IMG/VR virus record: IMGVR_UViG_3300021963_000067
Location: 1-64,000 of that record
Source: a virus
Direction: 5' to 3' (one strand)
Length of the DNA stretch: 64,000 bases
Under the pieces are notes generated by a model. It was not told the origin of the DNA. It made no database searches and worked only from the letters and a program-made list of their open reading frames with translations. Positions 33,134 to 34,349 of this stretch are shown one piece after another (the stretch's first letter is position 1; the number at the start of each line of letters is the position of its first letter). Both the position numbers and the translations under genes were made by a program.

Positions 33134-33325
33134 TTAGGCCTTGGCTTCTTTGCGGGCGTTCTTTTCTGCTGTAATTTCATTGCGACGAGCTTTTACACCT
33201 TTAGCAACTTCTTGTAGAGCTTTGCGAGCACGAGTACCTGCTGCACCATTGCCTGCGGTGAACTTTGCGTCCTCGGCTAAGAATGCTTCGAAGTCTGCTT
33301 TGAGTTGTTCTACTGTTGTTGACAT
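33134..33325 (-). CDS. Hc1-like histone-type DNA-binding protein, 63 aa
   Basis: A 63-residue Lys/Arg/Ala-rich helical protein: ADFEAFLAEDAKFTAGNGAA, then GTRARKALQEVAKGVKARRN. The G-N-x-A-A-G-x-R-x-R-K-A-L-x-x-x-x-K pattern resembles the Hc1/Hc2-like histone H1 family in chlamydiae and phages, which compact DNA. AAGGA lies about 8 nt before the ATG. It is a good candidate for condensing phage or host DNA together with the AP/K-rich protein at 21804. Confidence 0.75.
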   Translation of the reverse strand: MSTTVEQLKADFEAFLAEDAKFTAGNGAAGTRARKALQEVAKGVKARRNEITAEKNARKEAKA

Positions 33326-33388
33326 AATGTTTTCCTTATAGTTATGTTCTAATACTTATAAGCCACCTTGCTTGCAGGGGCTTAAAAC

Positions 33389-33499
33389 TGGTATGGTCGG
33401 TAGGTTTCGAACCTACAAAGACTCTGTCTACGACTTTGCCCCGTCCCCTTTCTAGCCTATGGGGCTAGCGGGAGGTCTGCCAATTCCACTCACGACCAC
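33389..33499 (-). tRNA. tRNA-like gene, 111 nt, type II, anticodon unresolved
   Basis: On the minus strand, GTGGTCG (33499-33493) pairs over 7 bp with CGACCAT (33399-33393; first pair G-U), followed by discriminator A and encoded CCA. A perfect T arm GTAGG-TTCGAAA-CCTAC is adjacent, and a Leu-like D loop GGAATTGGCAGA is near the 5' end. An AAAG...CTTT variable arm abuts the T stem. Between the D and variable arms are about 37 nt. They fold either as CTAGC-CCCATAG-GCTAG (anticodon would be CAU with C at position 33) or as CCCG/CGGG closing a 25-nt loop. Normal type II tRNAs are about 87 nt, so this one is oversized. Confidence 0.7.
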
Positions 33500-33542
33500 T
33501 TATACAGTATATAGTTTATTTTTAGAAAGGTCAATGCCAATT

Positions 33543-33550: not shown

Positions 33551-33557
33551 AGTGATC

Positions 33558-34349
33558 ATGAAACTGCCATTAGGTAAAATCCAAAATCTACAAACTCAGT
33601 TAGAGAATCATCCTCTTCTAAACGACAACGTTATCAAAGACATAGACGGTCTTCGACTGTTTATGGAACATCACGTGTTTGCAGTTTGGGATTTTATGAG
33701 TTTAATTAAAGGACTGCAACATCATGTGTGCCCTAGCACCACATGCTGGACTCCAGGACACCATATACGTAGTGGATCGGCAAGATTGGTTAATGAAATT
33801 GTGTTAGCCGAGGAAACAGATATTGATCTCGATGGAGTAAGTTCTATAAGCCATCACGATCTCTACTGTCAGGCAATGTTAGAAATTGGTGCTGATGCTA
33901 ATTTAATAGAAGAATGGGTTGAATCAGTAGAAGTAAATGGATTTCATGGAGCTAAAGAATACTGTTCAGTGCCTACTGCAAGTCTTGAATTTATGGAAAA
34001 AACTTTTGAATTTATTGACTCCGGTGAACCACATGTTATTGCAGCCGCATTTTGTTTTGGAAGAGAAACTGTTATTCCAAAGATGTTTGCCAGTCTATTA
34101 ACAAAATTAAAATTAAGTAATTTTGATTGCCCTAAGTTTTTTTATTATCTATCTCGGCACATCGAAATCGACAGCGAAAAACATGGACCAGCAAGTATAG
34201 CCCTTGTTGAGGATTTGTGCAATCATGATCCGGTACATATTCATGAAGCAGAGCAAGCGGCTCTGATAGCTCTTAAAGCAAGAATTAAACTTTGGGACGA
34301 TCTACACAAACTAATTCAGGAACAATCGCATTTATATACTCATGACTGA
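33558..34349 (+). CDS. DUF3050 protein, heme-oxygenase-like diiron-type fold
   Basis: The 263-residue helical protein matches DUF3050: FMEHHVFAVWDFMSLIKGLQ (near residues 34-53), an AAFCFGRETVIPKMF helix (about 172-186), and YYLSRHIEIDSEKHGPASIA (about 200-219). The last two supply E/H and H-x-x-x-D-x-x-x-H-type residues that occupy the metal positions of heme-oxygenase-like diiron oxygenases. Members of that superfamily oxidise fatty acids or amino-acid-derived substrates in natural-product pathways. The gene opens the accessory island and converges on the radical-SAM gene. A GTG 6 nt upstream is an alternative start. Confidence 0.8.
   Translation: MKLPLGKIQNLQTQLENHPLLNDNVIKDIDGLRLFMEHHVFAVWDFMSLIKGLQHHVCPSTTCWTPGHHIRSGSARLVNEIVLAEETDIDLDGVSSISHHDLYCQAMLEIGADANLIEEWVESVEVNGFHGAKEYCSVPTASLEFMEKTFEFIDSGEPHVIAAAFCFGRETVIPKMFASLLTKLKLSNFDCPKFFYYLSRHIEIDSEKHGPASIALVEDLCNHDPVHIHEAEQAALIALKARIKLWDDLHKLIQEQSHLYTHD

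What the first reader, a model, noticed from the sequence alone, without database searches (positions are those of the whole stretch)
33389..33499. Oversized 111-nt tRNA-like element with unclear anticodon arm
Acceptor stem, T arm and encoded CCA are standard and the D loop is Leu-like. The region between the D and variable arms is about 18-24 nt too long and can fold in two ways, either with C33 and anticodon CAU or as a 25-nt loop closed by CCCG/CGGG. Bacterial introns of this size in tRNAs are not known to me. It could be a tRNA with altered decoding, a tRNA mimic, or a decoy against host anticodon nucleases.
Basis: partly seen in the sequence, partly recalled or inferred. Interest (0 to 1): 0.6.

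Follow-up and report, generated by a model that had tools for sequence, protein, structure and literature searches.

The report
Phage tRNA mimic lacking an anticodon
A family of viruses of freshwater bacteria makes a small RNA that is a leucine-type transfer RNA in every part except the one that reads the genetic code, which is replaced by a fast-changing hairpin, so it probably works as a lure or sink for a host protein that handles tRNAs.

Summary
It is not a single odd tRNA but one member of an RNA family without a specific Rfam model. I found 80 distinct variants at 188 fetched loci of IMG/VR phage contigs, and one copy in each of the 13 positive records I searched whole. Acceptor stem (7/7 paired in all 57 aligned variants, 6 pairs with compensatory changes), T arm, variable arm and lower anticodon-position stem are supported by covariation. 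U8, A14A15, G18G19, U48, the T-loop and discriminator A73 are present in 80/80. The anticodon arm is not: its place is taken by hairpins capped by C-Y-Y-A-Y-A-G (window type, 30 variants), GNRA tetraloops (about 30), CUAG, 12-nt loops or a 4-nt loop. A sigma70-type -10 box ends 5-7 nt before the first base in 70/74 distinct upstreams (ordinary tRNAs of the same phages: 9/156), predicting a leaderless, independently transcribed RNA. It usually lies just before a histone-like Hc1 gene. The window's own phage separately encodes 27 ordinary tRNAs covering all 20 amino acids. Best reading: a non-decoding, Leu-type tRNA mimic that titrates a host protein reading the tRNA body. The target is inferred, not shown.

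The parts
33389..33499 (-). tRNA-like RNA, 111 nt (RNA position i = window 33500 - i)
   Evidence: 118.6 bits; family of 80 variants
33493..33499 (-). acceptor stem, 5' strand GTGGTCG
   Evidence: 7/7 paired in 57/57 variants, 6 pairs with two-sided changes
33473..33490 (-). D arm: A10-U25, G11-C24, bulged U, G12-C23; Leu-type loop GAAUUGGCAGA
   Evidence: invariant in most variants; a subclade has AGC-AAAUUGGCAAA-GCU with C12-G23 instead
33446..33472 (-). arm in the anticodon position: lower stem CCC/GGG, asymmetric internal loop G/AAA, upper hairpin
   Evidence: lower-stem pair covaries C-G / G-U / G-C
33452..33468 (-). upper hairpin CUAGC-CCCAUAG-GCUAG ('CAU' at 33459-33461)
   Evidence: 14 different 5-bp helices, all fully paired, around loop CYYAYAG
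33418..33442 (-). long variable arm GGGGC...GUCUU with inner hairpin GUC-GUA-GAC
   Evidence: outer and inner stems covary
33400..33416 (-). T arm GTAGG-TTCGAAA-CCTAC
   Evidence: 100% paired in 57/57
33393..33399 (-). acceptor stem, 3' strand CGACCAT
33389..33392 (-). discriminator A73 and encoded CCA
   Evidence: A73 in 80/80; ACCA in 74/80 variants
33506..33511 (-). -10 box TATACT, 6 nt before the first RNA base
   Evidence: 70/74 distinct element upstreams have a -10 box at 5-7 nt; ordinary phage tRNAs 9/156; random positions 2.9%
33529..33534 (-). -35 box TTGACC, 17-nt spacer to the -10 box
33359..33384 (-). hairpin just downstream of CCA (TAAGCC/GGCTTA), no U-run
   Evidence: seen in sequence; similar hairpins in relatives, not tested statistically
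33353..33359 (-). late-promoter-like ATAAGTA before Hc1
   Evidence: conserved NATAAGTA in nearly all relatives; ATAAATA is concentrated at gene starts in the window
33137..33325 (-). Hc1 histone H1-like gene (63 codons), downstream neighbour
   Evidence: PF07432, E=1.2e-13; linked in 167 of 188 fetched element instances

Best explanation
What it is (well supported, about 0.93): a phage-encoded, non-decoding class II tRNA mimic of Leu type. It keeps acceptor stem, D arm, long variable arm, T arm, discriminator A73 and usually an encoded CCA, while the anticodon arm is replaced by a non-decoding hairpin of variable sequence and length. It is predicted to be transcribed alone from a host-type sigma70 promoter whose start site is the first base of the acceptor stem, so it would need no RNase P cleavage. 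How it works (inferred, about 0.35-0.4): it folds into a tRNA-like L, is finished at CCA, and is bound, possibly leucylated, by host LeuRS. It cannot decode, so it acts in trans as a lure or sink for a host protein that recognises the acceptor/elbow/variable-arm half of class II tRNAs. That protein could be LeuRS itself or a tRNA-attacking immune enzyme. The phage's own 27 tRNAs meanwhile support translation.
For: Covariation over 57 variants. The core is invariant while the anticodon arm varies. The Rfam tRNA model reaches its gathering score in one member (L181, 30.8 against 29 bits) by aligning acceptor, D and T arms and skipping a 37-nt insert in place of the 17-nt anticodon-arm stretch. 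The best other matches of the family model in the same records are ordinary class II tRNAs, tRNA-Leu in most records and tRNA-Tyr in the window's own, at about 33-42 bits against 84-121 for the element. The three D-arm types of the family resemble the D arms of the phages' own tRNA-Leu genes. U8, A14A15, G18G19, U48, the T-loop positions and A73 are in 80/80 variants; a review lists A73, A15-U48, G18G19 and A20a as E. coli Leu determinants and reports that E. coli tRNA-Leu without anticodon and variable arms stays chargeable (PMC9976931). Promoter position. Own genome has 27 tRNAs for 20 amino acids. [quoted passage not shown]
Against: No expression, charging or binding data. The Leu-type determinants overlap with features common to many tRNAs, and in the window's own phage tRNA-Tyr scores higher with the model than tRNA-Leu. 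The target protein is unknown and no dedicated partner was found: Leu/Phe-transferase, class I synthetase core and TROVE families are absent from 10 searched records. Co-orientation just upstream of Hc1 in most relatives could mean a cis role. The conserved CYYAYAG loop in one large group of variants suggests the arm itself also binds something.
Confidence: 0.42

Rival explanations
1. It is a cis-acting tRNA-like leader that controls or protects the Hc1 (histone-like) mRNA downstream.
For: Co-oriented, tens of nt upstream of Hc1 in 167/188 fetched instances (many were fetched through Hc1, so biased). All of the 80 best Hc1 relatives that have enough upstream sequence carry it. No terminator between. 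In L203 and L210 no separate late promoter lies between.
Against: It occurs without Hc1 in 14 fetched loci, including the L003 type where another gene follows, and L018, L056, L057 and L082. Hc1 occurs without it in several relatives such as L205, L211, L226, L241 and L251 and in cultured phage S-SRM01. In nearly all other relatives Hc1 has its own late-type ATAAGTA element after the RNA. A cis leader would not need A73 and CCA.
Confidence: 0.2
2. It is a charged tRNA-like donor that hands leucine (or another amino acid) to a non-ribosomal enzyme.
For: Leu-type determinants kept without an anticodon.
Against: Phage-encoded Leu/Phe-tRNA-protein transferase not found in 10 records; other aminoacyl-tRNA-dependent enzymes were not searched.
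Confidence: 0.12
3. It is a Y-RNA-like scaffold or tether (YrlA-like): the tRNA-like module binds one protein, the variable hairpin another.
For: YrlA combines a tRNA-like domain with a stem (PMC8394870); here the hairpin is the variable module.
Against: No TROVE/Ro60 protein in 10 phage records; YrlA joins its 5' and 3' ends in a large basal stem, whereas here the ends form an ordinary acceptor stem with CCA; no Rfam match to a Y RNA family.
Confidence: 0.1
4. It is a real decoding tRNA for AUG (CAU) with an enlarged anticodon arm, or one with an unrecognised small intron.
For: Window type has a perfect 5-bp stem and 7-nt loop CYCAUAG resembling Met/Ile2 anticodon loops, maintained by 14 covarying helices.
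Against: Same core with GNRA, CUAG, 12-nt or 4-nt loops elsewhere; anticodon not fixed even in this loop type (CAU, UAU, CAC); no ARAGORN hit with intron options; the loop sits on an extra stem; the phage already has ordinary tRNA-Met genes.
Confidence: 0.05
5. It is a decaying tRNA pseudogene or chance tRNA-like sequence.
For: Not recognised by ARAGORN or, in the window, by Rfam.
Against: Compensatory changes in acceptor, variable, lower and upper arm stems, 80/80 core conservation, conserved promoter spacing.
Confidence: 0.01

Closest known systems
class II tRNA, especially tRNA-Leu
   Same: acceptor stem, D loop AA..GG.A, long variable arm, T arm, A73, CCA; Rfam RF00005 reaches gathering in L181; next-best model matches in the same records are mostly tRNA-Leu
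   Different: no anticodon arm: variable non-decoding hairpin; bulged pyrimidine in the D stem of the main type; transcription predicted to start at base 1
tmRNA tRNA-like domain
   Same: tRNA-like top half with the anticodon replaced by another RNA (PMC3929946, abstract)
   Different: no tag reading frame found, short, full D arm and long variable arm, not an Ala-type acceptor (no G3-U70); ARAGORN tmRNA search negative
YrlA bacterial Y RNA
   Same: tRNA-like module plus a separate stem (PMC8394870)
   Different: here the tRNA ends form an acceptor stem with CCA; no Ro60/TROVE gene found
phage tRNAs that counter tRNA-attacking immunity (T5, T6, and the anticodon-loop-mutant hypothesis)
   Same: phage tRNA gene products thought to blunt tRNA depletion (PMC11555353, PMC13096335, PMC10264068)
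   Different: those are decoding tRNAs; this cannot decode in the usual way
mascRNA/menRNA and plant-virus tRNA-like structures
   Same: tRNA mimics recognised by tRNA enzymes (PMC11693755, PMC5723415)
   Different: eukaryotic, 3' ends of long RNAs; no sequence relation tested

Membership tests
tRNA (decoding) | 7-bp acceptor stem, T arm, A73-CCA | tested here: met
   ACCA in 74/80
tRNA (decoding) | D loop with A14, G18G19 and U8 | tested here: met
   80/80
tRNA (decoding) | 5-bp anticodon stem with 7-nt loop at positions 27-43 | tested here: not met
   0 of 71 parsed variants with 5/5 pairs there
tRNA (decoding) | recognised by the tRNA covariance model / ARAGORN | tested here: not met
   window: none; L181 passes Rfam gathering only by skipping the anticodon arm
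intron-containing tRNA | anticodon loop interrupted by a removable insert | tested here: not met
   ARAGORN intron modes negative; L099 has the same core with a 4-nt loop
Leu-identity tRNA | A73, A15-U48, G18G19 | tested here: met
   80/80; determinants from PMC9976931
Leu-identity tRNA | is charged by LeuRS | not testable with these tools
   needs aminoacylation assay
tmRNA | tag-peptide frame, tmRNA model match | tested here: not met
   ARAGORN -m negative; no Rfam match
YrlA / Y RNA | bound by Ro60 (TROVE) protein | tested here: inconclusive
   no TROVE gene in 10 phage records; host gene possible
cis-regulatory leader of Hc1 | always in the Hc1 transcript | tested here: not met
   present without Hc1 in 14 fetched loci and Hc1 present without it

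The most novel reading that the evidence does not exclude
A widespread family of phage counter-defence RNAs: leaderless, early-made tRNA dummies with the anticodon arm removed, which soak up or jam host enzymes that attack or use tRNAs by their acceptor/elbow half, in phages that bring a nearly full replacement set of decoding tRNAs.
Probability: 0.3. Interest if true: 0.92.

Novelty: new variant of a known kind. Interest (0 to 1): 0.76.

Why it matters
RNA mimics of tRNA are known (tmRNA, Y RNAs, viral tRNA-like ends), but I found no described family in which a phage keeps a complete class II tRNA body and swaps only the anticodon arm for a rapidly changing hairpin, transcribed from its own promoter at base 1. 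It is common in environmental phages, missed by ARAGORN and mostly by Rfam, and directly testable. If it is a decoy it would be an RNA-based answer to tRNA-targeting immunity, including CCA-tail cleavage, for which the discoverers state that the means of viral resistance are unknown (PMC12851939).

Tried and rejected
ARAGORN with intron, intron-position, low-threshold, mitochondrial and tmRNA modes: nothing meaningful. Rfam on the window stretch and on 8 further relatives at gathering: none. Blast of the element against cultured phages: no relatives; two weak ordinary-tRNA matches in Acinetobacter phage Acj9. Two D-arm patterns against bacterial/archaeal genomes: 0 hits each, so no cellular source was seen at that stringency. 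The first attempt to find relatives through the upstream DUF3050 gene gave one close relative with the element (L027); the other contexts did not carry it there. The D stem as GAG/CUC was rejected because CUGCC variants break it. Searches for T4 RNA ligase (uninformative, no control rang), TROVE, Leu/Phe-transferase and class I synthetase cores in 10 records: none. RNase P inhibitor considered; disfavoured because the phage needs RNase P for its 27 tRNAs. Moraphages (PMC12619734), another Hc1-bearing phage group with mostly Bacteroidota hosts, were considered as a possible related group; not followed up.

Full report
The element. Window 33389-33499 on the minus strand reads GTGGTCG-TG-AGUGGAAUUGGCAGACCU-CCCG-CUAGC-CCCAUAG-GCUAG-AAAGGGG-AC-GGGGC...GUCUU-U-GUAGG-UUCGAAA-CCUAC-CGACCAU-ACCA. 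ARAGORN, with and without introns and in tmRNA mode, finds nothing here, and Rfam 15 gives nothing up to E=1 in the surrounding 5 kb. The record is a 94.8-kb IMG/VR phage contig. A baseplate-type protein has distant matches mainly in Synechococcus phages.

The family. A 20-base pattern from the D region hit 25 IMG/VR stretches, and two relaxed patterns extended this. Two searches for relatives of the downstream Hc1 protein gave a sample not chosen on the RNA. Altogether 80 distinct variants at 188 fetched loci were parsed (some contigs are counted more than once because they were fetched twice). A covariance model (R1) finds exactly one strong copy in each of 13 whole phage records (84-121 bits). 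The next-best matches in the same records, mostly at about 33-42 bits, are ordinary tRNAs: tRNA-Leu in most records and tRNA-Tyr in the window's own. No hit was found in GTDB genome contigs with two exact D-arm patterns or in the cultured-phage collection.

Structure. On a 57-sequence alignment (A1) the cloverleaf with a class II variable arm is supported by covariation: 96.3% of cells paired (shuffles 89.8%, slid partners at most 49%), 15 pairs with two-sided changes, 81 two-sided cells against 17.7 in shuffles, 0/500 shuffles as good. The acceptor stem is paired in every sequence at all 7 positions and changes on both sides at 6. The shuffle control ignores relatedness; the slide control does not. 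The three D-stem pairs counted do not vary in the rows where they were counted. Their support is the subclade with AGC-AAAUUGGCAAA-GCU, where G12-C23 becomes C12-G23 and the bulged pyrimidine is gone.

The missing anticodon. In the tRNA's anticodon position there is a lower stem (S-C-C with G-G-[G/Y], covarying C-G / G-U / G-C) topped by very different hairpins. One loop type, including the window (30 of 80 variants), has a 5-bp helix in 14 different fully paired versions around loop C-Y-Y-A-Y-A-G. Mostly this is CYCAUAG, but UAU (L058, L203) and CAC (L181) occur, so even here the 'anticodon' is not fixed. Another type has CGUU-GNRA-AACG with GNRA = GAGA, GCAA, GCGA, GGGA, GUAA or GUGA. Others have GAAA or GUAA on a different stem, CUAG, UUUUU, CCUUAAUU or 12-nt loops, and L099 has only a 4-nt loop, giving a 94-nt RNA. 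No parsed variant (0/71) has a canonical anticodon arm. The Rfam tRNA model, where it reaches threshold (L181, 30.8 bits against 29), skips 37 nt instead of the 17-nt anticodon-arm stretch and matches acceptor, D and T arms. So this is a tRNA-derived RNA that cannot decode in the usual way.

Transcription. In 70 of 74 distinct upstream sequences a -10 box (at most 1 mismatch to TATAAT) ends 5-7 nt before the first base of the acceptor stem, 66 of them at exactly 6. The same holds for 9 of 156 upstreams of ordinary tRNAs in these phages and 2.9% of random positions. A TTG-starting -35 lies mostly 16-17 nt further up. In the window this is TTGACC-17-TATACT-6-G. This predicts a leaderless transcript that needs no RNase P cut; it is a sequence inference, not a mapped start. 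Downstream, the conserved NATAAGTA before Hc1 resembles the late-type ATAAATA that is concentrated at gene starts in the window, so Hc1 probably has its own late promoter in most relatives.

Context. The co-oriented next gene is Hc1 (PF07432) in 167 of 188 fetched element instances, a figure inflated by the Hc1-based fetching, and a divergent radical-SAM gene lies on the other side in many. The link is not obligate: 14 fetched loci have the RNA without Hc1. Several more distant Hc1 relatives, and the cultured cyanophage S-SRM01, have Hc1 without the RNA. The window's own phage carries 27 ordinary tRNA genes for all 20 amino acids between 65 and 75.3 kb of the contig, so it does not need this RNA for decoding.

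Mechanism. U8, A14A15, G18G19, U48, the T-loop positions and A73 are present in 80/80 variants. Determinants of Leu identity in E. coli are A73, A15-U48, G18G19 and A20a, not the anticodon, and tRNA-Leu lacking anticodon and variable arms is still charged (PMC9976931). The family's D arms come in types resembling those of the phages' own tRNA-Leu genes. I therefore infer a Leu-type tRNA mimic whose body, not anticodon, is the functional surface. It would be made by host polymerase and would titrate LeuRS or a tRNA-attacking enzyme that grips acceptor, elbow or variable arm. Immune enzymes of that kind exist (CCA-tail cleavage, PMC12851939; variable-loop cleavage, PMC13096335), and phage tRNAs have been proposed as supplement or decoy (PMC13096335). 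Steps shown: fold, conservation, loss of anticodon, promoter placement as sequence. Steps inferred: expression, charging, target, benefit. Against it: no binding or expression data, no partner gene found, and a possible cis role for Hc1.

Limits. All relatives are metagenomic contigs; the hosts are unknown. The pattern searches require near-exact D-arm motifs, and the Hc1 searches returned only the best 80 loci each. Model E-values are rough. The window element and 56 relatives trained the model, so their scores are not independent evidence. Literature was searched only in open-access PMC text; no described equivalent was found.

Noticed in passing
contig G000:65048-75291 (L257), outside the window: The window's own phage encodes 27 ARAGORN tRNA genes covering all 20 amino acids; G010 and G012 relatives have 30-34 in the stretches fetched.
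   Followed up: partly
L257:7916-8007 (minus) and L261:4327-4418: ARAGORN calls a 92-nt tRNA-Ile(UAU) with a long class II variable region, an unusual pairing of anticodon and variable-arm class.
   Followed up: no
window 33137-33325 (minus): 63-codon histone H1-like Hc1 gene, with hundreds of relatives in IMG/VR; in cultured phages only S-SRM01 matched.
   Followed up: partly
L003:239-1207 and L069:1352-2329 (minus strand of loci): A conserved radical-SAM protein (~325 aa) with no specific NCBIfam family lies divergently next to the RNA in about half of the loci.
   Followed up: partly
window 33552-34349 (plus): DUF3050 gene, also weakly like an iron-containing redox enzyme (Haem_oxygenas_2), divergent to the RNA.
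   Followed up: no
window, ATAAATA sites, e.g. 29824, 35824, 35841, 60595, 60601: Late-promoter-like ATAAATA lies within 50 nt of a gene start at 14 of 19 sites in the window.
   Followed up: partly
L257:1..20000, tRNA-Leu genes: tRNA-Leu D loops come in three types that resemble the three D-arm types of the tRNA-like family, suggesting shared constraint or exchange.
   Followed up: partly
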